From assembly GCF_021287045.1 (NCBI RefSeq), contig NZ_JAJTBG010000002.1:310001-374000 (forward strand): a stretch of 64,000 bases of DNA, read 5' to 3'. Origin of the DNA: Oryzomicrobium sp. Lineage in GTDB: Bacteria; Pseudomonadota; Gammaproteobacteria; Burkholderiales; Rhodocyclaceae. The number at the start of each line of letters is the position of its first letter. Positions within the stretch are counted from its first letter, which is position 1. Both the position numbers and the translations under genes were made by a program. This document shows, piece after piece, positions 2,305-26,004 of this stretch. The notes below the pieces were generated by a model. It searched no databases, was not told where the DNA came from, and was given only the letters and a program-made list of their open reading frames with translations.

Positions 2305-3111
2305 ATGACCGCCCAACTTGCTACCCCACCCCTGCTGCACCGCGACGACCGGGACGGGGTGGTCACCCTCACCCTCGACCGCCCCGGCCAGTTCAACGCC
2401 CTGAGCGAGGGCCTGCTGGACGCCCTGCAAACCGAGCTGGATCGCATCGCCAGCGACCCGGCGGTGCGCTGCGTCGTCCTGGCCGGGGCCGGCAAGGCCT
2501 TCAGCGCCGGCCACGATCTGCGCGAGATGCGCGCCAGCCCCCGCCTCTCCTACTACCAGGCCCTGTTCAACCGCTGCGGCCGCCTGATGCAGAGCCTGCA
2601 AGCCCTGCCGGTGCCGGTGATCGCCCGGGTCCACGGCATCGCCACCGCCGCCGGCTGCCAGCTGGTGGCCAGCTGCGACCTGGCGATCGCCGCCGCAAGC
2701 GCCCGCTTCGCCGTCTCCGGCATCAACGTCGGCCTGTTCTGCGCCACCCCGGCGGTGGCCCTGTCGCGCAACGTCTCGGCCAAGCGCGCCTTCGACATGC
2801 TGGTCACCGGCCGCTTCATCGACGCCGCCACCGCCGCCGACTGGGGCCTGATCAACGCCGCCGTGCCCGACGACGCCCTGGATGCGGCCGTCGCCGCCAA
2901 GGTCGGCGAAATCCTGGCCAAGAGCCCGGCGGCGGTGCGCTACGGCAAGGCCATGTTCTACCGCCAGCGGCAGATGGCCCTGGGCGATGCCTACGCCTTC
3001 GCTGCCGACGTGATGGCGCGCAACATGATGGAGCCGGACGCCGCCGAGGGCATCGACGCCTTCCTCGCCAAGCGCGCCCCGCAGTGGCGTTCCCCGGACG
3101 CGTCGGCCTGA
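2305..3111 (+). CDS. Crotonase-fold protein, ECHDC3-like enoyl-CoA hydratase family
   Basis: 268 residues from the ATG at 2305, where the crotonase fold begins (an upstream in-frame start would add about 62 unrelated residues). AGAGKAFSAGHDLREM (about 60-75) contributes the first oxyanion-hole region and HGIATAAGCQLVASCDLAIA (110-129) the second. The two glutamates that activate water in classical enoyl-CoA hydratases are replaced by Gln119 and Gly139 (FAVSGINVGLFC). The GCQLVASCD and NVGLFC stretches match what I recall of ECHDC3-type proteins, a branch of unclear activity. It probably binds an acyl-CoA, but hydration is doubtful. Enoyl-CoA hydratase would be the automatic name. Confidence 0.8.
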   Translation: MTAQLATPPLLHRDDRDGVVTLTLDRPGQFNALSEGLLDALQTELDRIASDPAVRCVVLAGAGKAFSAGHDLREMRASPRLSYYQALFNRCGRLMQSLQALPVPVIARVHGIATAAGCQLVASCDLAIAAASARFAVSGINVGLFCATPAVALSRNVSAKRAFDMLVTGRFIDAATAADWGLINAAVPDDALDAAVAAKVGEILAKSPAAVRYGKAMFYRQRQMALGDAYAFAADVMARNMMEPDAAEGIDAFLAKRAPQWRSPDASA

Positions 3112-3189
3112 CTGACGGCCATGCCGGCATACGGACCGGCCGGGGCGCCACGCCCGCAGCGCCGGCCCGGCATCGCGTAGGATGCGGCC

Positions 3190-4290
3190 ATGTCCCGAAG
3201 CGCACCTTCTTCCCACCTGCCCAAGCCACCGCCGGATACGGCAACCGCAGGCGACTCCGGCAATTTCGCCGATTCTGCCGACTCCACCGGCCCCGCCTGC
3301 CGGGCCGATGCGCCCCCGCGTCAGCGGGAAGCGCCGCGCCGCCTGCCGCCGCTGATCGCCCTGTCCTACTTCGAAGCCGCCGCCCGCACCGGCAGCTTCG
3401 TCGAGGCCGCCCGGCTGCTGCACGTTTCCCCCGCCGCCATCAGCCACCAGGTGAAGGCCCTGGAGGCCCACCTGGGCATCGCACTGTTCGTCCGCCAGCC
3501 GCACCGGGTGGTGCTGACCCGGTCCGCCGAGGCCGCCCTGCCGCGCCTGCAAGAGGGCTTTGCCGCCCTGGCCGAGGCGGTGGAGCAACTGCGCGCCCAC
3601 GATGAGGATCAGGCCGTAGTCACGGTCTGCGCCGAGCCCCTGTTCGCCACCAAGTGGCTGGTGCCGCGCCTGCACCGCTTCTACGCCCGCTGCCCCGAGG
3701 CCGAGGTACGCCTGCAGGCCAGCTTGAGTTCGGTGGACTCCGCCCCCGGCGGCCCGGTCACCGCGGCCAGCTTTCGCCGTGCCGGCATCGACCTGTCGGT
3801 ACGCCTCGGCTACGGCCAGTACGCCGACCTGGAGGCCGCGCCCCTGCTCGATCTCGACCTGGTGCCCCTGTGCGCCCCGGCCCTGGCGCCGCGCCTGGTG
3901 ACGCCGGCCGACCTACTCGCCGTACCCCTGCTGTGCGACAGCACCCTGCTGCGCCCGGCGGAACGCTTCGGTTGGGCCGAGTGGCTGCGCGCTGCCGGGG
4001 TGGCGGTGCCCGCGCCGCTGCGCGAACAGCGCTTCGGCAACGGCCTGCTGGCCCTGGAGGCCGCCGCCACCGGTCAGGGGGTGCTGCTCGGCAGCGCCGC
4101 CCTGACCCAGGCCGAGCAGGCGGCGGACAAGCTGGTGGTGGCCTTCCCCCAGCCGCTCCGCGCCCCTGTCGCCTACCACGTGGTGTGCCCCCCAGGCGCC
4201 CTGGAACGGCCCATCGTCGCCGCCTTCCGCGACTGGCTGCGCGAAGAGCTGGCGCGGGATGCGCACGGGCCGGCGGCCGCAGCGCCCTGA
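3190..4290 (+). CDS. LysR-type transcriptional regulator (GcvA-like)
   Basis: 366 residues. A helix-turn-helix of LysR type is at about residues 53-112 (FEAAARTGSFVEAARLLHVSPAAISHQVKALE), followed by a periplasmic-binding-protein-like effector domain. The ALSYFEAAARTGSF start and the way the domain reads are like GcvA-type regulators. The first 50 residues are Pro/Ser/Ala-rich and unlike family members; the true start may lie downstream, although no clearly better start codon precedes the HTH. The DMT transporter gene follows 34 bases later on the same strand and is a plausible partner or target. Confidence 0.85.
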   Translation: MSRSAPSSHLPKPPPDTATAGDSGNFADSADSTGPACRADAPPRQREAPRRLPPLIALSYFEAAARTGSFVEAARLLHVSPAAISHQVKALEAHLGIALFVRQPHRVVLTRSAEAALPRLQEGFAALAEAVEQLRAHDEDQAVVTVCAEPLFATKWLVPRLHRFYARCPEAEVRLQASLSSVDSAPGGPVTAASFRRAGIDLSVRLGYGQYADLEAAPLLDLDLVPLCAPALAPRLVTPADLLAVPLLCDSTLLRPAERFGWAEWLRAAGVAVPAPLREQRFGNGLLALEAAATGQGVLLGSAALTQAEQAADKLVVAFPQPLRAPVAYHVVCPPGALERPIVAAFRDWLREELARDAHGPAAAAP

Positions 4291-4324
4291 CGAACGACCA
4301 TCAACCCCACCCGGGACTTCTCCC

Positions 4325-5176
4325 ATGCCCCCGCTGCGCCTCCTGCTGTTCGTCGCACTGGCCATGGTGGCCTTTGCCGCCAACTCCCTGTTCTGCCGTC
4401 TGGCCCTGCGCGAAACCGGCATCGACGCCGCCAGCTTCACCACCCTGCGACTGGTTTCCGGGGCGCTCATGCTGTGGCTGCTGGTGCGTCTGCGCGGCGG
4501 GGCCAATGGTGGAAAGCACGGCAGCTGGGCCTCGGCCCTGGCCCTGTTCGCCTACGCCGCCGCCTTTTCCTTCGCCTACCGTACCCTGCCCGCCGGGGCC
4601 GGAGCGCTGCTGCTCTTCGGCGCGGTGCAGGCCACCATGATCGGCTACGGCCTGTGGCGCGGCGAACGCCTCGGCGCCCGCCAATCCGCCGGCATGGCAT
4701 TGGCTGCGGCCGGTCTGGTGGGATTGCTGCTGCCCGGATTGTCCGCCCCACCGTTGCAGGGTGCCGTGCTGATGCTGGCCAGCGGCGTCGCCTGGGGGGT
4801 CTATTCGCTGCGCGGCCGCGGCGTCGCCAACCCGGCCGCCAGCACCACCGGCAACTTCCTGCGCGCCGTGCCCTTCGCCCTGGCCCTGAGCCTGGTCCAG
4901 CTTTCCAGCGCCAGCGTCGATGCCGCCGGTGCCGCTTACGCCGTGGCTTCCGGCGCCCTGGCCTCGGGCCTGGGCTACGCCCTGTGGTACGGCGCCCTGC
5001 CGATGCTGCGCGCCACCACCGCCGCCACGGTGCAGCTGAGCGTGCCGGTGCTCGCCGCCTTGGGCGCGGCGGCCTTCCTCGGCGAGGCCATCACCCTGCG
5101 GCTGATGTTGGCGTCGCTCGCCGTGCTGGGCGGCATCGCCCTGGTGATCCGCAGCCCGCGCCGGGGCAGCCGCTAG
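4325..5176 (+). CDS. EamA/DMT-superfamily permease
   Basis: 283 residues from the ATG at 4325, chosen because the first membrane helix (PPLRLLLFVALAMVAFAAN) begins immediately after it. About ten hydrophobic segments form two EamA repeats; the NSLFCRLALRETGIDAASFTTLRLVSGAL stretch and the C-terminal AATVQLSVPVLAALGAAAFLGEAIT are standard DMT motifs. Such proteins export metabolites or amino acids at the inner membrane. The substrate cannot be inferred. It follows a LysR regulator with a short gap, suggesting one unit. Confidence 0.8.
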   Translation: MPPLRLLLFVALAMVAFAANSLFCRLALRETGIDAASFTTLRLVSGALMLWLLVRLRGGANGGKHGSWASALALFAYAAAFSFAYRTLPAGAGALLLFGAVQATMIGYGLWRGERLGARQSAGMALAAAGLVGLLLPGLSAPPLQGAVLMLASGVAWGVYSLRGRGVANPAASTTGNFLRAVPFALALSLVQLSSASVDAAGAAYAVASGALASGLGYALWYGALPMLRATTAATVQLSVPVLAALGAAAFLGEAITLRLMLASLAVLGGIALVIRSPRRGSR

Positions 5177-5262
5177 CCGCCCTTTCCACTCCGATGGAAT
5201 AAAATCGCCGCCCGGGCCGCCATTGCCATGGCGGTGTTTCCTTTCACGGCCAGGCGACAAGA

Positions 5263-6234
5263 ATGACTTCCCAAAGCAACGGCGCATTCTCCGGCGCCGA
5301 TTCGCGGCATTCGTGGCGCGAGTACGCCCAGCGCATGAACCGGGTGATCGACCACATCGACCGGCACCTGGCCGGTACGGTGGACCTGGCCAGCATCGCC
5401 GATGTGGCCAATTTTTCGCCCTATCACTTTCATCGGCTGTTCCTCGCCTGGATGGGCGAAACCCTGGGGGACTACGTGCGGCGGCGGCGCCTCGAAGCCG
5501 GAGCCCTGATGCTGAACCACCAGCGCCACACGCCGGTGCTCAACATCGCCCTGGACGTGGGCTTTGGTTCCAGCGAGGCCTTTTCCCGGGCCTTCAAGCA
5601 GCACTTCGGCATGACCCCGAGCGATTGGCGCAAGAGCGCCCCCGCCCGCCGGGAGGCCAGCCTGGCGGCGCAACGCAATCCCGATCAGGCGGAAAGCAAG
5701 CGCGATCAGGTGCCGGGGGAGGGGAGCGGCCATGATGGCGAACCCCTTTTCGAGGAGCCCATCATGAACGTCACGATTGCCACCCTGGCCCCGGTACGGG
5801 TCGCCTATATGCGCCACATCGGCCCCTACGGCCCGAGCATCAGCCGCTTCTGGCAAGAGCAATTCCTGCCCTGGCGCCACGCCAATGGGCTGGAGCAGGC
5901 CTCCTGCTACGGCATCGGCTACGACGACCCCGACGTCACCCCGCCCGGCAAGTGCCGCTACGATGCCTGCGTGGTGGTTCCGGAGGAATTCGTCGCCCAT
6001 GCCCCCGTCAGCATCGCCACCCTGCCGGGGGGACGTTATGCCGTGGCCGATTTCCGTGGCGACGGCCCGGCCATCGGCGGCGCCTGGACCGAGCTGCTGC
6101 GCCGCTGGCTGCCCAGCAGCGGCATGCAGCCTGACAGCCGGCCGTTCTTCGAGTACTACCCGGCCGATGCCTACTACGATGCCGCCAGCGGCATCATGGA
6201 ATGCCAGCTGTGTGTGCCAGTGCGGCCCCTGTAG
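5263..6234 (+). CDS. AraC-family regulator with C-terminal GyrI-like effector domain
   Basis: 323 residues. An AraC/XylS DNA-binding domain with two helix-turn-helix units occupies about residues 24-118 (IDRHLAGTVDLASIADVANFSPYHFHRLF and ALDVGFGSSEAFSRAFKQHFGMTPSDWR). After a charged linker, residues about 168-323 form a GyrI-like small-molecule-binding domain. The architecture is that of Rob/SoxS-like regulators which sense lipophilic ligands. The HTH-first order places it with the AraC-GyrI proteins rather than classical AraC. It is transcribed alone and followed by a hairpin terminator. Confidence 0.87.
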   Translation: MTSQSNGAFSGADSRHSWREYAQRMNRVIDHIDRHLAGTVDLASIADVANFSPYHFHRLFLAWMGETLGDYVRRRRLEAGALMLNHQRHTPVLNIALDVGFGSSEAFSRAFKQHFGMTPSDWRKSAPARREASLAAQRNPDQAESKRDQVPGEGSGHDGEPLFEEPIMNVTIATLAPVRVAYMRHIGPYGPSISRFWQEQFLPWRHANGLEQASCYGIGYDDPDVTPPGKCRYDACVVVPEEFVAHAPVSIATLPGGRYAVADFRGDGPAIGGAWTELLRRWLPSSGMQPDSRPFFEYYPADAYYDAASGIMECQLCVPVRPL

Positions 6235-7702: not shown

Positions 7703-7977
7703 CGCGGAAAGAAGGGGGTACCTGCCGTTGCGCTACTAATGCTGATCAATGACTGCTTCAGTAACCAACGTAGGACAGCTCCCGACCCATTCCGGACCTT
7801 CAGCTATCTGACTTGGTAACGTCAGCTTACTGAGCGCAGCAGACGTTCAGAGCATCTGCTAGACGCGAACTCCTCGGCCTTAGCTGCCGGTGGCAATTAG
7901 ATTCGCCAACGTCATATATGGAATGGGATCCAGACATAAGCATGACGTCGATCTAAAAAGGCCATCGTCTCTTATCG

Positions 7978-9822
7978 CTACTTGAGAATTAAAGCGATCA
8001 TCAACTTCACTCTCTCGACAAACCCGAGGTTGATTGGCTTATCCAGGTTTCCCCAGGCGTCTTCACACAGGCTCTGAATGTCACCCGTGTAGATTTGATC
8101 AAGGCGATCAGGAACCGTGAGACCCAGATTCGCAGCAAGTGACAAAGCAATGTAGTCACCAAACTCATGGTTTACCGCGCCCGGCAATTCACAAAATGAC
8201 TCTTTCGATCGATGTTGCCGCTTCCCGTGCTGCAACAAGGCGGAAATCAAACGAATGGCGTGGTAATCAAAGCTCCCGCCAGCTTTGTGCGCCAGCAGCG
8301 GTTCAAGCTGCAACGCAGGAATGGACAACATTTCGTGGATGTTCCACTCAAAATCATCGTTCAGATGATTCCATTCGCCAATCGACTTCAGATATTGCTG
8401 CAGGCAGCTGAAGGCCACTGACAGTTTTCCATGGGCGTAGCCATCAAACTCAGGCGAACTCGACAAAACGCGAAGCAGATTATCCAGCGCCACCCTCAGA
8501 TTCTCGTCGGTCTGCCGAGTCGCAAACGAGCGGCCATAAAACACGCGCTGCATGGCGGAAAGATACTGGCCTGTTGCGGACTGCGGAACAGCCCGGTGCA
8601 GCCAGTGCAGCAAGGGCATCAGGTCAATGAAGTCGCCAAGGAAATGGCTCAGGTCCATCGCCAGTTTGATGGGCGGTTCTTCCACCGGTAGCGGCTCAGG
8701 TGCAACACCCCGGTGTCGCAGTTCATTCTTGGCCAGACTGAGCAGGTTTTCGACAAGCTCATACCGATCTTTCTCGAACCAGATCGGGGTGATGCCCAGC
8801 TTGGCCAGCTCCGCGTTGCGCAGGGCGATCCCCGCGGGGGTCTCCGGGGCCTGCTCGATGGAGAAGTGCTGTTTGATCTCCTCCTCTTCGCCCATGTCTT
8901 CCCTGATCTTCCTGAATACCTGCACCGTTCGGTCATTACTCAGGCTACAGCCCAAAAAGAGCAGACTGCTGTTCTTGTAATGGTAGGCAAGCAGCTTGGG
9001 GATGGGTTTGTGCAAATTCAGGCTGCCGTTGCCATAGGCATCGTCGTATTGGTTCTTGCTGAGGATGCAGCGTCCCGGCTCGCGAATATCCCCGTGCAGC
9101 TTGATGACCGTGATCTTCTTCGGGTCGGGCTGCTCCAGCGCATTCAGGCCATTGATCACCTGAACCCTGCCGGCCTCGCCGGTTTCAAACGACTGCTCAA
9201 GCAAGCGATCATAGTTGGTGGTGATCACCGTATCCGTGAACAGCTCGGAGATGCGCCAGACCACATCGGGGATAGTGGGGTTGCGGGAGAATTCATCGCG
9301 AATTTCGTTGATGAACACCTCGCGGCCCCGAATAGCCTCGATCTCTTCCAGCACCGTTTCGTAAGCGCCGGCAGCCAACAGGTCTTCGATGCGTTCCGCA
9401 GCGATATGCGCTGTTTTTCCCTGGTGGCGCAGATGCTCCTTCCAGCTTGAAAACCCCGCCGATGCCGAAATGCCCGCCCCGACAAACGGCACCACCGCCC
9501 CGGCTGCCATGAGATCGACTAGCTGGACGAAGTGATCCACATTGCGCTGGAACCAATGGTCATCGCCAAGCTGCTCCTGAAACCAGGACTCGCCCAGCGC
9601 CTCGTGACGACAGACTTTGCGAAATGCCTGAAACGCTTCGTCGTAGCTTTTTCTATCCCCCGCAAACAGTGCCTTGCTGGGCTGGGGCAAAGCATCGACA
9701 CCGTAATCAATCCGGGCCCCCTGCCCTTCCTCGCTATCCAGCCACTCGTTGAAATCAGCAAAGTGCTGGTAACGATAATGCTCGTCTTCGTCGCACCAGA
9801 TTTTGTGCAGCGCCAGCGTCAT
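7978..9822 (-). CDS. SIR2-domain protein, last gene of the type I restriction operon
   Basis: 614 residues. A SIR2-like NAD-binding domain spans about residues 100-380: GAGIS at 115-119, TTNYD with Asn203, KLHGD with His243, and FLGCSLSND around 290-297. The Asn and His correspond to the catalytic positions of SIR2 NADases. The first 100 residues and the helical last 230 residues match nothing I recognise and may sense or bind partners. It starts 10 bases after the hsdS stop, and AGGA in that gap can serve as ribosome binding site, so it is part of the hsdRMS operon. Known SIR2 defence proteins (ThsA, DSR, SIR2-Argonaute partners) destroy NAD on phage infection; that activity here is inferred from motifs and context. 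Base composition is less GC-rich than neighbouring housekeeping genes. Confidence 0.85.
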   Translation of the reverse strand: MTLALHKIWCDEDEHYRYQHFADFNEWLDSEEGQGARIDYGVDALPQPSKALFAGDRKSYDEAFQAFRKVCRHEALGESWFQEQLGDDHWFQRNVDHFVQLVDLMAAGAVVPFVGAGISASAGFSSWKEHLRHQGKTAHIAAERIEDLLAAGAYETVLEEIEAIRGREVFINEIRDEFSRNPTIPDVVWRISELFTDTVITTNYDRLLEQSFETGEAGRVQVINGLNALEQPDPKKITVIKLHGDIREPGRCILSKNQYDDAYGNGSLNLHKPIPKLLAYHYKNSSLLFLGCSLSNDRTVQVFRKIREDMGEEEEIKQHFSIEQAPETPAGIALRNAELAKLGITPIWFEKDRYELVENLLSLAKNELRHRGVAPEPLPVEEPPIKLAMDLSHFLGDFIDLMPLLHWLHRAVPQSATGQYLSAMQRVFYGRSFATRQTDENLRVALDNLLRVLSSSPEFDGYAHGKLSVAFSCLQQYLKSIGEWNHLNDDFEWNIHEMLSIPALQLEPLLAHKAGGSFDYHAIRLISALLQHGKRQHRSKESFCELPGAVNHEFGDYIALSLAANLGLTVPDRLDQIYTGDIQSLCEDAWGNLDKPINLGFVERVKLMIALILK

Positions 9823-9832
9823 GTCCTGCTAC

Positions 9833-11551
9833 TCAGCCGATGGCCCGCTCGACGAGAGCGTCGGCGAGGTGGAGCTGGGTGGTTTGGGCGTCGCTAAGGC
9901 GGGATTTGAGCTGGTCGCACAGAGCCATCAACTCGTCGACTTTGGCGACGATTCGGTGTTGTTCGGCGAGCGGCGGAATCGCCACAACAATTCCATTCAT
10001 TTTTGCCTGATTCATCTTTGGCTGAGCTGTCCCAGTTACATATGGCTCAAGCGATATAGCGTTGATATACAGGCAAACGTACAGGAGTAACCCTTCTGAG
10101 TAACCATCAAGCACATGGGCATGATTGTTCACCCAATACTTCCCGTACGCCATGAAAGCGATTGGAGTAGAGCGATTTATCAAGTTCGCTCCGTCCTCAC
10201 CGATCAACAATAACGGCTTATCAAAAAGGTAGGCGTCAATTGCATCGATGACTCCGGAAGCGCCGTAGTAGTCGTATTCACCTCGCCGCGTTGCTCTCTC
10301 ATCTACTGACAATGGGATGCGCTCAGAATCTCGATTGATCAAGAGATTGCCAAAACGAATGAGCTTCCACCCAGCCGGGACCTTGAACGGCTTTTCCTCT
10401 TCTGCAATTGGTAGTTGCGGCTTGTCCTTCTTGATCTTGCCTTCCTTCACCAACTTTGCTTTCTCGGCGGCGATCTTCTTGAGCAGTTCGCTGGCGGGTT
10501 CGTCGTTCGGGTCTTGCGGGACGAGCTTGCCCATCACCGCCAGTTGCAGGATGGTTTGCTTGAGCTGGTCGATGCTCTCTTCAGTCACGAACAGCGTGTC
10601 GAAGTGGCCGGCGATGCGCTGCCAGGCGCTGGCAAATTGTGTGTGATCGGCAGCGCTGGTCAGCGCGTTCAGCAAGGTTTCCACCAGCGTTTGATGGGCG
10701 CCGAGGCTGGCGTCGGTTTGTTGCTCAAGCTGGTCGCACAGCGCCATCAGTTCGTCGACTTTGGCGACGATGCGGTGTTGTTCAGCGAGCGGAGGCACTA
10801 CCATCGGCATTATGGACAGTTGTCCCAGGTATATGCCCTTCTGAGCCGTACCCTTTGCGTGCACTTCGTAGTAATGGAGGCACGAGGGTGCAACAAGTTG
10901 CTTTGCCAGAAACTGAGGTGACAATCCGGATTTGAGAACTGCGACGCTGCGTTGAAGGACAAACTTCGGAGCGTCAGCCGGAACAACCGCTGCACGACCA
11001 ATCGAGGCGACAATGTTTAACAGCACATCATTTGGCTCGATGAGAGTCCTTTGATTTTCCTTCTGAAAGTCATCTTCCGAAACGAAGCGCGAAGGGTTCT
11101 GAAAGTCGATTTTGTTGTAGTTGATATTCTGACTGCTTAGCATCGCGTAACCGGTACCTGCATCGGCCGGTGGATTGTGTGAGCCGTCTGTTAGCTTTTG
11201 GCAAACTTTTCCTAATCGCTCCCACGCCCAAGTGTTGGGCACTCGGAACGGTTTTTCCTCTTCTGCGACAGGTGACAGCGGTTTTTCCTTCTTGATCTTC
11301 CCTTCTTTCACCAGCTTCGCCTTCTCGGCAGCAATCTTTTGGAGCAGTTCGCTCGCCGGTTCGTCGTTCGGGTCTTGCGGCACCAACAAGCCGCGCACAG
11401 CCAGTTCCAGAATCAGCTCGCGCAGCTTCTTGATGCCGTACATCTCGACCTTGCTGGAAGAGCCCCGGCCGGCGGTGGATTTGCGCTTGAGGGCGGCGGT
11501 CCACAGATCGAGGTGATCCGTGACCAGTGTTTCAACAGCGGCCATGCTCAC
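9833..11551 (-). CDS. hsdS: Type I restriction-modification specificity subunit HsdS
   Basis: 572 residues, two target-recognition halves. A near-identical block appears at residues 44-105 and 333-392 (LVPQDPNDEPASELL and AAEKAKLVKEGKIKK in both), and a second block (PPLAEQHRIVAKVDEL) at 253-275 and 526-548; these are the conserved spacer helices. The stretches between (about 106-250 and 393-525) differ and should be the two TRDs, each reading half of a bipartite site. It is translationally coupled to hsdM through an ATGA overlap at 11548-11551. HsdS fixes the sequence specificity of the HsdM/HsdR complex; the site cannot be predicted. Confidence 0.92.
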   Translation of the reverse strand: MSMAAVETLVTDHLDLWTAALKRKSTAGRGSSSKVEMYGIKKLRELILELAVRGLLVPQDPNDEPASELLQKIAAEKAKLVKEGKIKKEKPLSPVAEEEKPFRVPNTWAWERLGKVCQKLTDGSHNPPADAGTGYAMLSSQNINYNKIDFQNPSRFVSEDDFQKENQRTLIEPNDVLLNIVASIGRAAVVPADAPKFVLQRSVAVLKSGLSPQFLAKQLVAPSCLHYYEVHAKGTAQKGIYLGQLSIMPMVVPPLAEQHRIVAKVDELMALCDQLEQQTDASLGAHQTLVETLLNALTSAADHTQFASAWQRIAGHFDTLFVTEESIDQLKQTILQLAVMGKLVPQDPNDEPASELLKKIAAEKAKLVKEGKIKKDKPQLPIAEEEKPFKVPAGWKLIRFGNLLINRDSERIPLSVDERATRRGEYDYYGASGVIDAIDAYLFDKPLLLIGEDGANLINRSTPIAFMAYGKYWVNNHAHVLDGYSEGLLLYVCLYINAISLEPYVTGTAQPKMNQAKMNGIVVAIPPLAEQHRIVAKVDELMALCDQLKSRLSDAQTTQLHLADALVERAIG

Positions 11552-13041
11552 TGCGCTCCCGTGAGCGCAGCGGAGAGGATGTCCTTGAGCTGGTCGCGTA
11601 GCGACTGGATGTCCTGCTGCTGTGCCCGATACTGCTGCAGGAGTTCTTCAGGGTCGTGGCTGATCTGCTCGCCAACGTGCGGGTTCTTGATGTCGAGGTT
11701 GTAGTTGCGGGCGGCAATCTCTTCGAGGCTGACTTTCCACGCCTGCGGGGTTTCCACGCGGGCCACGAAGCCGTCGGCTTCCTCGCCCCACCAGGCGCAT
11801 TCGGTGGCGAATTCCTCGAACTGCATGGGGCGGGTCTTGTTGTAGCTGGTGACACCCTCGGGGTAGGGATGCTCGTAGAACCAGACGTCCTTCGTTGCCG
11901 GCCATTCGGCCTCGGGCTTCTTGGTGAAGAAAAGGATGTTGGTCTTGATGCCGGTGTAGGGATTGAACACGCCATTGGGCAGGCGGACGATGGTGTGCAG
12001 ATGGCATTGCTCCAGCAGCGTCTGCTTCAGGCGGGTCTTCATGCCTTCGCCGAACAGGAAGCCATCGGGCAGGACCACGGCGGCGCGGCCGTGACTCTTG
12101 AGCAGGCGGACGACCAGCGCCATGAACAGGTCGGCGGTTTCGCGGGTGCGCAGGGTCGCGGGGAACTGGTTTTCGACGCCATCCTCTTCCATGCCGCCAA
12201 AGGGCGGGTTGGTGATGATGACATTGACGCGGTCGGCCTCGCCGTAGTCGGTGTAGGCGCGTCGGCTGAGCATGTTGTCGTGCTCGATCTGGGTCGGGGT
12301 GTCGATGCCGTGCAGGATCATGTTGGTGGTGCACAGCATGTGCGGCAAGGCTTTTTTCTCGACCCCGTGGATGCTGGCAACGAGGACGGCTTCGTCCGCC
12401 GCGTTCTTCACGTAGCGGTTGCGCTTGTGGTCGATGGCGCATGCGAGAAAGCCGCCGGTGCCGCAGGCGGGGTCGAGCACGCTTTCGGCAAGCTTGGGAT
12501 CAACCCGGTCGACGATGAACTTGGTGACGGCGCGGGGGGTGTAGAACTCGCCGGCGTTGCCGGCGCTTTGCAGGTCTTTGAGGATCTGCTCGTAAATGCT
12601 GCCGAAGGTGTGGCGGTCTTGCGTGTTGTTGAAATTGATCTCGCAGATCTTGTTGATGACCTGCCGCATGAGGGTGCCCGACTTCATGTAGTTGTAGGCA
12701 TCCTCGAAGACGTTGCGGATGACCTTGGCGCGCTCGCCGGTGGGGCCGCTGACCGCAAGCTTGTTCTTCAGCGTGGGAAAGAGCTGGAGGTTCACGAAGT
12801 CGCCCAGCTCGTCGCCGGTCATGCCTTCAGGGTCGGCCGCCCAGTTGCGCCAGCGCAGATGCTCGGGCAGCGGCGACTTGTAGTGATCTTCGAGCAGTTC
12901 GATTTCTGCTTCGCGGTCATCGTAAATTTTGAGGAAGAACATCCAAACCAACTGGCTGATGCGCTGGGCATCGCCGTCGACGCCGACATCCTTGCGCATG
13001 ATGTCCTGGATGGATTTGATGATGCCGCTAACGTTGCTCAT
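11548..13041 (-). CDS. hsdM: Type I restriction-modification methyltransferase subunit HsdM
   Basis: 497 residues. An N-terminal helical HsdM domain (about 1-135) precedes an adenine-N6 methyltransferase domain with SAM-binding motif I DPACGTGGF (190-198) and catalytic motif IV NPPF (278-281). The EQILKDLQSAGNAGEFYTPRAV block is also diagnostic. With HsdS it methylates both strands of the recognition site to protect host DNA. It begins 16 bases after the hsdR stop. No interruption or missing motif is seen, so the modification part looks functional. Confidence 0.95.
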   Translation of the reverse strand: MSNVSGIIKSIQDIMRKDVGVDGDAQRISQLVWMFFLKIYDDREAEIELLEDHYKSPLPEHLRWRNWAADPEGMTGDELGDFVNLQLFPTLKNKLAVSGPTGERAKVIRNVFEDAYNYMKSGTLMRQVINKICEINFNNTQDRHTFGSIYEQILKDLQSAGNAGEFYTPRAVTKFIVDRVDPKLAESVLDPACGTGGFLACAIDHKRNRYVKNAADEAVLVASIHGVEKKALPHMLCTTNMILHGIDTPTQIEHDNMLSRRAYTDYGEADRVNVIITNPPFGGMEEDGVENQFPATLRTRETADLFMALVVRLLKSHGRAAVVLPDGFLFGEGMKTRLKQTLLEQCHLHTIVRLPNGVFNPYTGIKTNILFFTKKPEAEWPATKDVWFYEHPYPEGVTSYNKTRPMQFEEFATECAWWGEEADGFVARVETPQAWKVSLEEIAARNYNLDIKNPHVGEQISHDPEELLQQYRAQQQDIQSLRDQLKDILSAALTGAQ

Positions 13042-13057
13042 GGTGCTTTCTGACTAC

Positions 13058-15400
13058 TTAACTTGCTTGTTTGAAGAGTTCGGTTTCAAGGGCTTGCAAA
13101 GCTGCTTCGTATTGAGCCTTGCCGCCGAATACGCCGTTGATGATTTCCACGGGCGTGCCCAGCTGCTTGAAGGGATCAAGCTTGAGGACGTTGTTGTTCT
13201 CGATGCTGACGATGCCTTCGTCGGCGTATTTGTCGAGCAGGGCTTCCAGCACGGCGCGCGCCTGGTCGCCGTATTGGGTGAAGTAGTTGCGCTTCTTGAC
13301 GTTGTTTGCCCGCTCGGCTCGGGTGAGGGGCGGCTGGTCAAAGGCTATGTGGCAGATGAGGTCGAAGTCGCCGTAGTCCTTGCCCACTTCCTTGGCGAGC
13401 TTGGGCAGCTCGATGCCGTATTCGGCGAGGGCCTCGATGATAGCGGCCTTTTTCTTGCTGCTATTCCACTTTTGCAGGAAGTCATCCAGCGAGGTGAATT
13501 CCTGGCGGATGTTCTTGCGGCTGTAGTCGCGGTAGCTTTCGGTGACCATCTTGCCGTCTTCGCCATAGACCTCGACACGCTCGGCAACGATGTGAACCGT
13601 GACACCGCCGACGTGATACTTCTTGATGCCTTCGCCTTCTTCGCCCCCCGCTTCACCCTCTTCTCCGTCGCCTTCGGGATCGGGGGGAACGGGGTCGTCG
13701 TCAGGTTCTGGCTCGTAGATGACGACCGGTTCACCATCGAAATCCGGATCCTTGAAGAGCTCGGTGGCCTTCTTGAAATCCATGATGGTGAAGAAGTATT
13801 TGTTCTGCGATTCTTCGATGCGCGTACCACGGCCTACGATCTGCTTGAAGGTGGTCATCGAGTTGATGGTCTTGTCGAGCACGATGAGCTTGCAGGTCTT
13901 GGCGTCCACTCCGGTGGTCAGTAGCTCCGAGGTGGTGGCGATGACGGGGTATCTGCTTTCCGGGTCGATGAAGTTGTCCAGTTCGGCCTTGCCCTCCACG
14001 CTGTCGCCGGTGATGCGCATCACGTACTTGCTATTGGCTTTCGCCAGTGGTCCGGAAGCATTGACGATGGCCTTGCGCATGCGCTCGGCGTGGTCGATGT
14101 CTTCGCAGAAGATGATGGTCTTCTGGAACGGGTCGGTGGCGTTGAGTAGCTTCATGACGCGCTCAGCGACGAGCCGGGTGCGCTGGTTGAGCACCAGGAT
14201 GCGGTCCATGTCGATCTGGTTGTATTCGCGCTGCTCGATCTCGTTGCCGAGATCGTCTTTCATGCCGGGCGGCGGCGTCCAGCCGTGAATGTCCTTGTCG
14301 ATGTCGATACGCACCACCTTGTAAGGTGCAAGGAATCCGTCCTGAATGCCCTGCTTCAGGGAGTAGGTGTAGATCGGTTCGCCAAAATAGGTGATGTTGG
14401 AGGCGTACTTGGTTTCCTTGGGCGTGGCAGTCATGCCCAGCTGGATGGCACCGTCAAAATATTCGAGGATTTCTTTCCAGGCGGAATCATCGTTGGCGCT
14501 GCCACGATGACACTCGTCGATCACGATCAGATCAAAAAAGTCGCGCTTGACCGACTTGAATATCTTGTCTTCCTCATCGGGGCCGGTGAGTGCCTGATAC
14601 AGGCCCAGATAAACCTCGTAGGAAGGGTCGATCTTGCGATTGCGGATTTTGGTCATGACCGTGCCAAAGGGCTTGAAGTCGTTGACCAGTGTCTGGTCTG
14701 CCAGAATGTTGCGGTCCACCAAGAAAAGAATGCGTTTTGCCTTCTTAGCCTTCCAGAGACGGTAGATGATCTGGAAGGTGGTATAGGTCTTGCCGGTGCC
14801 GGTGGCCATGACCAGTAGCAGGCGTTTTTCGCCTTGGGCCACTTTTTCGATCACGCGGTTAATGGCTTCCGCCTGGTAATAGCGCGGCTCCTTGTTGCTG
14901 CCGTCATCGTGGTAGGGTTCGGTGACCAGGGATTCCTGATCGTCTGCAATGCCTCTGAAACGCTTGTAGCGCGCCCAGAGTTCCGCTGGCGAGGGAAAGG
15001 CATCCAGCCTGAATTCGGTTTCAGTGTCTTCGCCTTCGGCAGCCGTCTTGTTATGGCTGGCAAATCCGTCGCCGTTGGAACTGAAGGCGCAGGGTACGTC
15101 CAGGATTTCGGCATAGCCCAAAGCCTGCTGCAACCCATGGCTGATGGTGTAGTTGTTTTCCTTGGCTTCGACCACCGCTACCGGCACGCCTTTTTCCTTC
15201 TGGAGCACGTAGTCGGCGAATTTCTTCTTTTTCTTGTTGCGCGAGGATAGATTGCCGCGAACAACGACCGGCCCCGGGGTCAAGGTCACCTCACGGCGAA
15301 TCTGCGTCATCTCGTCCCAACCTGCCTGGACGATGGCCGGCGTGATGAACTTGGCCTTGATGTCAGACTCGCTGAGTTCCTTCTTCTCGTTGCTATCCAT
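13058..15400 (-). CDS. hsdR: Type I restriction endonuclease subunit HsdR
   Basis: 780 residues. The N-terminal nuclease motif is visible as Asp63 (FADYV) and EAK at 78-80, followed by the QxxxY-like QQALGY. The SF2 translocase motor contains Walker A ATGTGKT (199-205), DECH (295-298), GMTATP and, near residue 540, VGRGTR. An acidic Glu/Asp/Pro/Gly-rich linker around residues 575-605 precedes an EcoEI-type C-terminal domain. The protein translocates unmodified DNA and cuts when stalled. Short relative to EcoKI HsdR (over 1000) but normal for the EcoEI-like branch. First gene of the four-gene operon. Confidence 0.95.
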   Translation of the reverse strand: MDSNEKKELSESDIKAKFITPAIVQAGWDEMTQIRREVTLTPGPVVVRGNLSSRNKKKKKFADYVLQKEKGVPVAVVEAKENNYTISHGLQQALGYAEILDVPCAFSSNGDGFASHNKTAAEGEDTETEFRLDAFPSPAELWARYKRFRGIADDQESLVTEPYHDDGSNKEPRYYQAEAINRVIEKVAQGEKRLLLVMATGTGKTYTTFQIIYRLWKAKKAKRILFLVDRNILADQTLVNDFKPFGTVMTKIRNRKIDPSYEVYLGLYQALTGPDEEDKIFKSVKRDFFDLIVIDECHRGSANDDSAWKEILEYFDGAIQLGMTATPKETKYASNITYFGEPIYTYSLKQGIQDGFLAPYKVVRIDIDKDIHGWTPPPGMKDDLGNEIEQREYNQIDMDRILVLNQRTRLVAERVMKLLNATDPFQKTIIFCEDIDHAERMRKAIVNASGPLAKANSKYVMRITGDSVEGKAELDNFIDPESRYPVIATTSELLTTGVDAKTCKLIVLDKTINSMTTFKQIVGRGTRIEESQNKYFFTIMDFKKATELFKDPDFDGEPVVIYEPEPDDDPVPPDPEGDGEEGEAGGEEGEGIKKYHVGGVTVHIVAERVEVYGEDGKMVTESYRDYSRKNIRQEFTSLDDFLQKWNSSKKKAAIIEALAEYGIELPKLAKEVGKDYGDFDLICHIAFDQPPLTRAERANNVKKRNYFTQYGDQARAVLEALLDKYADEGIVSIENNNVLKLDPFKQLGTPVEIINGVFGGKAQYEAALQALETELFKQAS

Positions 15401-15815
15401 CAGGGGAATCCAAAGTTGGATGGGGCGTGGCTTGTTTGCGCCATCGGTGCGCTGCCGGGCTGAAAATTTTATCCGGTTTCTGCAATGTCAGCTTGGCGGC
15501 ATATTTCGCCCACTCTGTAAAATAGGTCGGTAAGTCCGCGGTGGCCGTGGAGTTCGTATTCAGCACTTGCCCTTAACGGCAGCGGCACTCGGTAAGCTGC
15601 CGTTCACGGCTTTTCTGGTTGAGCGGCGGGTAACCAGCGCATTGCAGCCTAATCCTGACCAGAGGCCCAAGGTCCGCTCTGGCCGAATAACAGCCAGCTA
15701 ATCTAGACAAAAAAACAAAAAAGGCCACCCTATGCGAGTGGCCTTTTTGTATGAACAGTTCCCAAGAAATCTAGACTTTTGGGAAAAATCTAGACAATCG
15801 TGGGATCCTACACCA
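15401..15815. other. Non-coding spacer between gyrB and the restriction operon
   Basis: No credible gene. The half next to hsdR should hold the operon promoter, but I see no convincing -35/-10 pair. The half next to gyrB contains three copies of AATCTAGAC (15700-15708, 15768-15776, 15787-15795) and a terminator hairpin. The repeats may mark the edge of the inserted defence operon or be a regulatory motif. Confidence 0.6.
15708..15750 (-). terminator. Rho-independent terminator of gyrB
   Basis: Read on the minus strand, AAGGCCAC/GTGGCCTT (15738-15745 with 15721-15728) forms a stem with a 9-base loop, followed by a long T-rich tract (TTTTGTTTTTTTG). It lies about 70 bases after the gyrB stop. 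Confidence 0.8.
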
Positions 15816-25535: not shown

Positions 25536-26004
25536 TTGCCGAACAGTGCAATGGGGCAGTGATTTGCAGGGAATTCACAATTTCCATCTACAGAAGAAAT
25601 GACGACTTTTACGGCTGGTTCGTTATTAACCTTGATTTTTCTCTGAAAAAAACAGTATCAGGCCAACCCAAAATTCTCACATCACAGTTTTCAGCCAATC
25701 CTCCCGACCGGCCTAAGAAGCATGCCAGAGTCTATCAAATAAAATACATTAAAAATAATCAACACAATGTTTTTAAAAGATTTTTTTATAAAACACGACA
25801 GAATTCGGCGTCTATAAAACGGGGAAGGGAAATCGAATCCCGAGCTGGTCGTCCGACACCAAATGCAATTCCTTCTCTTCGCTCATCGGCAGAGCAAGTC
25901 GTGGTGGCGTAAACGACTTTGATCCATCAGTGTTCCGGCAGGAAAAGAATTCTCTGCCGGATGTTCTGATCTGCCGTCCACCGGCGGCGGAAGGGGAAAA
26001 CACC
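25536..26004. other. AT-rich non-coding region before the DUF995-like gene
   Basis: A strikingly AT-rich stretch (about 25560-25810, richest at 25736-25800) in a GC-rich genome. A 117-codon open frame at 25559-25912 has no family resemblance and basic, low-complexity composition, so I do not call it. The stretch may be part of the origin region or a remnant of transferred DNA, and holds the promoter of the next gene. Confidence 0.5.

What the first reader, a model, noticed from the sequence alone, without database searches (positions are those of the whole stretch)
7978..15400. Type I restriction operon with an attached SIR2-domain gene
hsdR, hsdM, hsdS and a 614-residue SIR2-domain protein are co-oriented with gaps of 16, -4 and 10 bases, so they form one operon. 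The SIR2 domain keeps GAGIS, Asn203 and His243. Type I systems are known to carry anticodon nucleases (PrrC, RloC) as a second line if restriction is blocked; a SIR2 NADase in that role would be an analogous guard. Its first 100 and last 230 residues are unassigned and could sense the HsdRMS complex or a phage anti-restriction protein.
Basis: partly seen in the sequence, partly recalled or inferred. Interest (0 to 1): 0.75.

Follow-up and report, generated by a model that had tools for sequence, protein, structure and literature searches.

The report
NADase gene wired into restriction operon
A bacterial DNA-cutting defence operon carries a fourth gene for a probable NAD-destroying enzyme, and the relatives found sit in the same place in such operons, which suggests a built-in second, self-sacrificing line of defence against viruses.

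Summary
Observation confirmed: hsdR-hsdM-hsdS plus a 614-codon SIR2 gene on one strand, gaps 16, -4, 10. The SIR2 core matches ThsA in sequence and fold; Asn203/His243 align with the ThsA residues needed for NAD+ cleavage. All 16 close homologues found (window included) lie directly behind hsdS or its remnant; five distant ones lie between hsdS and hsdR, the slot of the anticodon nuclease prrC; none of nine TIR-flanked ThsA-type controls is hsd-linked. HsdR and HsdM motifs are intact in 12 of 12 complete operons checked; SIR2 is under purifying selection and has changed RM partner at least once. Elsewhere the slot behind hsdS holds other defence-like genes or nothing. Here the unit is an 8.05-kb insertion between gyrB and yigZ. 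Best reading: an NADase suicide effector coupled to the type I complex; trigger untested. Sir2 genes in type I RM operons, with PrrC-like coupling, were predicted in 2012 (PMC3506569), so the general idea is not new; no experiment on such a gene was seen in eight literature listings. New variant of a known kind.

The parts
13058..15400 (-). hsdR, EcoAI/FtnUII-type restriction subunit, 780 aa, PD-ExK-like, Walker A, DECH and motif VI present
11548..13041 (-). hsdM, N6-adenine methyltransferase subunit, 497 aa, DPACGTGGF and NPPF present
9833..11551 (-). hsdS, specificity subunit, two Methylase_S stretches, 572 aa, GTG start overlapping the hsdM end by 4 bases
7978..9822 (-). SIR2-domain protein, 614 aa, 10 bases behind hsdS; probable NADase effector
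9508..9822 (-). residues 1-105: N-terminal domain, helical in the model, no Pfam match; conserved in the 12 other aligned rows that have it, and found in G488 and G333
8698..9507 (-). residues 106-375: SIR2 core; GAGIS 115-119, N203 (codon 9214-9216), H243 (codon 9094-9096)
7978..8697 (-). residues 376-614 plus stop: C-terminal extension, low-confidence helical model, absent from 4 of 15 judgeable close homologues
7721..15770 (.). 8,050-bp insertion between gyrB and yigZ; the four genes are the only ones I count in it; same-genus genome G001 has 57 other bases there
15718..15748 (-). terminator-like hairpin between gyrB and hsdR

Best explanation
The fourth gene encodes a SIR2-fold NAD+ hydrolase that is the abortive-infection effector of this type I restriction-modification operon. 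The Hsd complex methylates host DNA and cuts foreign DNA as the first line. The SIR2 protein, made from the same operon, stays inactive and is switched on through the state of the Hsd complex during infection; it then destroys NAD+ and stops the infected cell. The 0.55 covers two triggers: failure or inhibition of restriction, as for PrrC (about 0.32), and engagement of the complex on unmodified DNA (about 0.23). Shown here: gene order, recurrent linkage, NADase-type fold and catalytic pair, intact RM motifs, purifying selection. Inferred: NAD+ hydrolysis by this protein, physical coupling to Hsd proteins (perhaps by the N-terminal domain), the trigger, and the abortive outcome.
For: 16 of 16 close homologues directly behind hsdS or an hsdS remnant; hsdR and hsdM also found in 13 of 16 (L007 and L009 start at contig edges, L006 is degenerate). 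Five of five distant relatives lie behind hsdS and before hsdR; next to hsdS in four of five, with overlaps of 4 or gaps of 0-2 bases. 0 of 9 ThsA-type controls have an hsd match in the stretch held; all nine have a TIR neighbour. N203/H243 face ThsA N112/H152; fold hits are ThsA, KomC, DSR2, FAM118B. dN/dS about 0.18-0.20 for SIR2 against L002, L003, L005. HsdR and HsdM motifs intact in 12 of 12, so SIR2 is an addition and not a substitute for a dead nuclease. prrC holds the same position, hsdM-hsdS-prrC-hsdR (PMC3014915, passages).
Against: No experiment. Gene order cannot show physical coupling. SIR2 and RM genes have been re-paired (window and L004: SIR2 87% identical, HsdR 77%), so SIR2 is not tuned to one Hsd complex. 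SIR2 is less constrained than HsdR (dN/dS 0.05-0.07) and HsdM (0.10-0.11) in the same pairs. L006 keeps SIR2 without cognate hsdM. Most EcoAI-like operons lack this gene (3 of 34; 0 of 8 plasmid operons opened). L014 has an in-frame stop in the N-domain. 11 of the 13 loci are from MAGs, and the window, L002, L003 and L005 are near relatives of each other, so the 16 are not 16 independent events.
Confidence: 0.55

Rival explanations
1. Independent SIR2 defence gene sharing the operon: like DSR or ThsA it recognises a phage component or signal through its own N- or C-terminal region and depletes NAD+, needing only expression from the RM operon.
For: Other defence-like genes occupy the same slot: NucS-like PDC-S11, Abi_C-like, AAA plus nuclease, DUF262 pair, a SIR2 of PADLOC's SIR2 model in G238. 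SIR2 and RM genes have been re-paired and SIR2 persists without hsdM in L006. A degenerate N-domain fragment lies away from hsd genes in Methylomonas LW13. SIR2/HerA systems sit between or behind RM systems in Streptococcus thermophilus (PMC11514479, passages).
Against: Linkage in 21 of 21. Among profile matches at E <= 1e-15 in 398 Pseudomonadota and 296 Bacteroidota genomes, the non-linked ones are ThsA; with the clade-2 query the three plasmid records at E <= 1e-25 are all linked. A freely working defence gene should also occur alone.
Confidence: 0.27
2. Direct co-effector (a sub-model inside the 0.55 of the best explanation): the HsdRMS complex, when it binds or moves on unmodified phage DNA, activates SIR2 as a parallel effector, as short pAgo does with SIR2-APAZ, whether or not restriction is blocked.
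For: Same positional evidence; DNA with cleavable sites is also a positive effector of PrrC activation (PMC3014915, passages).
Against: Would risk suicide at unmodified host sites; no test here.
Confidence: 0.23
3. SIR2 is a latent toxin and the Hsd proteins are its antitoxin, so loss of the operon harms the cell (addiction).
For: PMC3506569 proposes immune components as reversible inhibitors of attached toxins (passages).
Against: L006 keeps a 614-codon SIR2 frame with no hsdM beside it and hsdR/hsdS reduced to a fused remnant; the genome shows only 33% and 31% identical HsdM matches, on another contig. One MAG only.
Confidence: 0.1
4. SIR2 has a non-NADase role, such as ADP-ribosylating or deacylating an Hsd subunit to tune restriction.
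For: Some SIR2-fold enzymes are deacylases or ADP-ribosyltransferases (established knowledge); PMC3506569 offered ADP-ribosylation or nuclease activity.
Against: Best sequence and fold matches are the defence NADases ThsA, KomC and DSR2.
Confidence: 0.07

Closest known systems
PrrC anticodon nuclease in the EcoprrI type IC operon
   Same: Extra effector gene behind hsdS in a type I operon; order hsdM-hsdS-prrC-hsdR equals the clade-2 order M-S-SIR2-R; presumed second line.
   Different: Unrelated protein: PrrC is ABC-ATPase plus HEPN RNase (PMC3710099); here a SIR2 enzyme. The window operon is R-M-S-SIR2 of EcoAI/FtnUII type, not IC.
Sir2 genes in type I RM operons predicted by Makarova et al. 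2012 (PMC3506569)
   Same: Same association and same coupling hypothesis in general terms.
   Different: In the text I saw: one figure panel and two sentences, no counts or anatomy; Sir2 was called a nuclease or possible ADP-ribosylating toxin.
ThsA (Thoeris)
   Same: SIR2 core aligns at residues 91-330 (2.8e-14); N112/H152 equivalents kept.
   Different: No STALD/SLOG domain, no TIR partner; hsd genes instead.
SIR2-APAZ with short pAgo; DSR1/DSR2; SIR2-HerA; KomC
   Same: SIR2 NADase effector, in several cases joined to a separate partner (PMC10952713, passages).
   Different: Partner here is a type I RM complex with intact motifs; Dsr NCBIfam scores 14-16 bits against a cut-off of 1400.
PARIS (AriA/AriB)
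   Same: Described as an RM guardian in a 2025 review (PMC12707154, passages).
   Different: No SIR2 domain (recalled).

Membership tests
Type I RM system, EcoAI/FtnUII kind | HsdR, HsdM and two-domain HsdS with catalytic motifs | tested here: met
Type I RM system, EcoAI/FtnUII kind | Site-specific methylation and restriction | not testable with these tools
   needs methylome and plating tests
SIR2-fold NADase effector | SIR2 core with Asn and His of the NAD site | tested here: met
   N203/H243 face ThsA N112/H152, positions counted in the printed alignment; invariant in 14 of 14 rows; fold hits
SIR2-fold NADase effector | NAD+ hydrolysis | not testable with these tools
   no assay
Thoeris (ThsA) | C-terminal STALD/SLOG domain | tested here: not met
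   no STALD match in the window protein; present in the 4 of 4 genome controls scanned
Thoeris (ThsA) | adjacent TIR (ThsB) gene | tested here: not met
   neighbours are hsdS and yigZ
DSR1/DSR2 | full-length Dsr equivalog score | tested here: not met
   14-16 bits against 1400
PrrC-like RM guard (works like) | effector gene embedded in a type I operon behind hsdS | tested here: met
   21 of 21; one of them with a further gene between
PrrC-like RM guard (works like) | latent in association with Hsd and activated by an anti-restriction protein | not testable with these tools
   needs pull-down and challenge
PrrC protein family | ABC-ATPase plus HEPN RNase domains | tested here: not met
   only SIR2_2 found

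The most novel reading that the evidence does not exclude
Type I RM operons have a plug-in effector socket behind hsdS. Different suicide or nuclease effectors (SIR2, PrrC, Abi_C-like, NucS-like, AAA plus nuclease, DUF262 pairs) are swapped in and out of one slot and read the same Hsd-complex state; the ~105-residue N-terminal domain of the SIR2 family is its adaptor to that complex. Type I RM would then be a general infection sensor with exchangeable death effectors.
Probability: 0.2. Interest if true: 0.75.

Novelty: new variant of a known kind. Interest (0 to 1): 0.5.

Why it matters
If true, one of the commonest bacterial immune systems carries its own NAD-depleting fail-safe, as PrrC does for tRNA. 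It would explain part of what phage anti-restriction proteins face and would make the 2012 immunity-suicide coupling hypothesis testable in a compact four-gene cassette of about 7.4 kb that can be cloned whole into a laboratory strain.

Tried and rejected
Thoeris membership was rejected (no STALD domain, no TIR neighbour). DSR membership was rejected. Replacement of a dead HsdR nuclease by SIR2 was rejected: nuclease-like motif, Walker A, DECH and motif VI are present in 12 of 12 operons checked. A shared N-terminal domain among the slot genes was sought and not found (blastp); the N-regions of clade 1 and clade 2 alone do not match significantly (E 0.12), although the whole proteins align from residue 18. 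The N-domain profile found only the three known orthologues in 398 genomes; the A1 profile also hit a 48-residue N-domain fragment with a stop in Methylomonas LW13 (G493, E 8e-11; no Hsd match in the 14 kb around it). Two weak hits among relatives (G065 E 2e-6, G095 E 9e-4) have no Hsd match in the stretch held and were not counted as family. No relatives in phage records or viral contigs. In E. coli genomes only a 204-base hsdS stretch matched. I first read the G251 slot gene as SIR2 by eye; Pfam shows RhuM. Of 21 next ORFs behind hsdS, 11 were counted as slot genes and 10 were not: G149, G154, G443, G084, G433, G209, G434 and G265 were not scanned; G455 and G427 were scanned without a Pfam match. 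The AlphaFold model is weak outside the SIR2 core (mean pLDDT 58, C-region mostly under 50), so no fold is claimed for the flanking regions.
Full report
Observation. The window carries, on the minus strand, hsdR (13058-15400), hsdM (11548-13041), hsdS (9833-11551) and a 614-codon SIR2 gene (7978-9822), with gaps of 16, -4 and 10 bases. HsdR belongs to the EcoAI/FtnUII family (1149 bits, cut-off 550); HsdM and HsdS are clear Pfam members and SIR2 matches SIR2_2 at 102 bits. G+C is 0.54-0.61 in the four genes against 0.636 for gyrB and 0.675 for yigZ. The same-genus genome G001 has gyrB (2841-5330) followed by yigZ (5453-6040); its alignment to the window ends at window 15771 and resumes at 7720, so 8,050 bases replace 57, and the four genes are the only ones I count in them. 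Of 100 other genomes in the relatives search none has an orthologue; two have weak hits. The unit was probably acquired as a cassette.

The SIR2 protein. phmmer against the PDB finds ThsA first (2.8e-14, residues 91-330). In the printed alignment to 6lhx, N203 and H243 face ThsA N112 and H152 (positions counted by me). Ka et al. 2020 (PMC7272460, passages read) report that N112A and H152A abolish NAD+ cleavage, with a caveat on oligomerisation for H152A. N203, H243 and the GAG of GAGIS are invariant in 14 of 14 rows. The AlphaFold model is moderate in the SIR2 core and poor elsewhere (mean pLDDT 58.2); the leading Foldseek hits are ThsA, KomC/HAM-SIR2, DSR2 and FAM118B. PADLOC's best model is ThsA, only over residues 98-328. 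So it is a SIR2-fold enzyme of the defence NADase kind, with an unassigned N-domain and a C-terminal extension that 4 of 15 judgeable close homologues lack (L012, L013, L014, G488).

Linkage, close homologues. A scan of the genome collection with SIR2 peptides alone gave 13 loci, by title from Zoogloea, Rhodocyclales, Betaproteobacteria, Thiobacillus, Azoarcus, Acidithiobacillus, Methylophilaceae, Methylomonas (2), Gammaproteobacteria, Flavobacterium and Ignavibacteria; 11 of 13 are MAGs. tblastn placed hsdS, or in L006 its C-terminal remnant, immediately upstream in 13 of 13; hsdR and hsdM were both found in 10 of 13, L007 and L009 starting at contig edges and L006 being degenerate. A profile search of 398 Pseudomonadota genomes at E <= 1e-15 gave 7 genomes: the window's own, G488, G333, G193 and three ThsA (G427, G242, G310). 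G488 and G333 are orthologues behind hsdS with hsdM and hsdR, hsdR and SIR2 both cut by contig ends in G333. That makes 16 of 16 with the window.

Linkage, distant homologues. A second clade, 28-33% identical to the window protein over the matched stretches, occurs in G193, G659 and three plasmids (Photobacterium damselae pPHDD1, Vibrio maritimus, Ketogulonicigenium vulgare p3). All five lie behind hsdS and before hsdR; hsdM is seen in four, hsdS of G659 being at a contig end. SIR2 is next to hsdS in four; Photobacterium has one gene between, and G659 has a YhcG nuclease between SIR2 and hsdR. In 296 Bacteroidota genomes the matches at E <= 1e-15 are G490 (the genome of L013), G659 and one ThsA, G564. 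The clades align with 100% probability over residues 18-368. A clade-2 profile in 374 Pseudomonadota genomes found only G193 and the window's own at E <= 1e-25.

Controls. Four genome ThsA (E 1e-19 to 1e-22 to the profile, against 7.5e-31 for G193) carry STALD and a ThsB_TIR neighbour; five plasmid hits (H1, H18, H20, H26, H30) have annotated TIR neighbours. None of the nine has an Hsd match in the stretch held. G427 has an EcoAI-like HsdR on another contig. Of 30 plasmid records hit by the window protein I opened eight: three hsd-linked, five with TIR; 22 were not opened. With the G193 protein five plasmid records matched: the same three at E <= 1e-25, and H34 and H35 near 1e-5, not linked. 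With the Photobacterium protein 66 records matched; besides those already named I opened H40 and H50, neither in an hsd operon, though H50 has a methyltransferase gene about 6.5 kb away. Fisher on 21 of 21 against 0 of 9 gives 7e-8, post hoc and ignoring relatedness.

The converse. Of 398 Pseudomonadota genomes, 34 have an EcoAI-like HsdR at E <= 1e-150. For the 33 besides the window I held the loci. Seven gave no HsdS match behind HsdR, five had no next ORF or ran off the contig (among them G333, whose SIR2 start is seen), and 21 had a next ORF. This SIR2 family sits there in 3 of 34 (window, G488, G333). Others: Abi_C-like in G197, G181 and G224 (only G181 scanned, 20.3 bits, below the cut-off of 24); NucS_C-like in G358 (above cut-off), G319 (below cut-off; PDC-S11 540 bits), G296 and G466 (by similarity to G319); DUF3800 in G126; a 255-aa gene plus an AAA protein nearest PtuA in G332, 85 bases behind hsdS; and a SIR2 of PADLOC's SIR2 model in G238. 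Eight annotated plasmid operons with close HsdM (8 of 14 records opened) show AAA plus nuclease, a DUF262 pair, a hypothetical gene plus MqsA, SymE 220 bases on, a small gene 197 bases on, and in three nothing listed close; that gene table is incomplete. The slot is optional and variable. Several junctions of different genes keep a gap of 9-10 bases.

Selection and exchange. For SIR2, window against L002, L003 and L005, dN/dS is 0.18-0.20; by region 0.10-0.15 (N), 0.12-0.17 (core) and 0.22-0.27 (C); HsdR 0.05-0.07 and HsdM 0.10-0.11 in the same pairs. Window and L004 are 87% identical in SIR2 but 77% in HsdR and 81% in HsdM, although SIR2 is the faster gene between close pairs, so SIR2 and RM genes were re-paired. 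HsdR and HsdM motifs are present in 12 of 12 operons checked; four HsdM pieces (L002, L003, L005, L008) were cut by me at approximate ends, and the L008 piece runs past its stop, so its dN/dS failed.

Mechanism. [quoted passage not shown] Whether it guards against inhibition, is fired by engagement on foreign DNA, or senses phage on its own is open. L006, with SIR2 intact and no cognate hsdM found, speaks against an obligatory Hsd antitoxin but is one MAG.

Literature. Makarova et al. 2012 (PMC3506569; passages and the first part of section 4) state that type I and III RM systems encompass toxin-like domains including Sir2, and that Sir2 enzymes are linked to type I RM; they propose coupling by analogy with PrrC. 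A 2024 paper notes SIR2/HerA systems between or behind RM systems in Streptococcus thermophilus (PMC11514479, passages). A 2023 review lists Sir2 systems without type I RM in the passages I saw (PMC10952713). A 2025 RM review names PrrC and PARIS as RM guardians and holds no 'Sir2' (PMC12707154, word search and passages). Also seen in passages: PMC7251935, PMC3710099, PMC3874165. I saw no experimental study of a type I RM SIR2 gene in the listings of searches, some of them capped; most subscription journals and bioRxiv are not held. Hence: a published general prediction, here with a defined family, linkage counts, domain anatomy and testable rivals.

Noticed in passing
L006:8238-9785: Thiobacillus MAG: one open frame fuses an HsdR motor stretch to the HsdS C-terminus, hsdM is not beside it, SIR2 is intact; a natural deletion derivative or an assembly fault.
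   Followed up: partly
L002:7170-8231, L008:7304-8287, L038:8100-9140: Further accessory genes in such operons: YhcG/DUF1016 nuclease in L002 (between hsdM and hsdS) and L038 (between SIR2 and hsdR), RhuM-Fic in L008 (between hsdM and hsdS).
   Followed up: partly
L010:11794-16589: KAP ATPase, an unassigned gene, QueC and TatD genes directly behind SIR2 in Methylomonas sp. LW13, the layout of QatABCD as I recall it.
   Followed up: partly
L029:1388-5188: A 1266-residue SIR2_2 protein lies divergently beside the M-Ymh-S-SIR2-R operon, so two SIR2 genes flank one RM locus.
   Followed up: partly
L028:6675-6887 (G493:C1 near 25665-25808): A degenerate fragment like the SIR2 N-domain, with a stop, away from hsd genes in Methylomonas LW13, which also has the complete operon.
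   Followed up: partly
L087:4116-5315: A RhuM frame behind an RM locus begins with a SIR2-like string (VVFFCGAGISYP), possibly a SIR2 remnant.
   Followed up: no
L014:9956-11140: The SIR2 frame of the Ignavibacteria MAG is interrupted by one in-frame stop in the N-domain.
   Followed up: no
L084:12112-13449: A SIR2 of PADLOC's SIR2 model (562 bits), not of the window family, sits behind an hsdS-like gene in G238: perhaps independent recruitment.
   Followed up: partly
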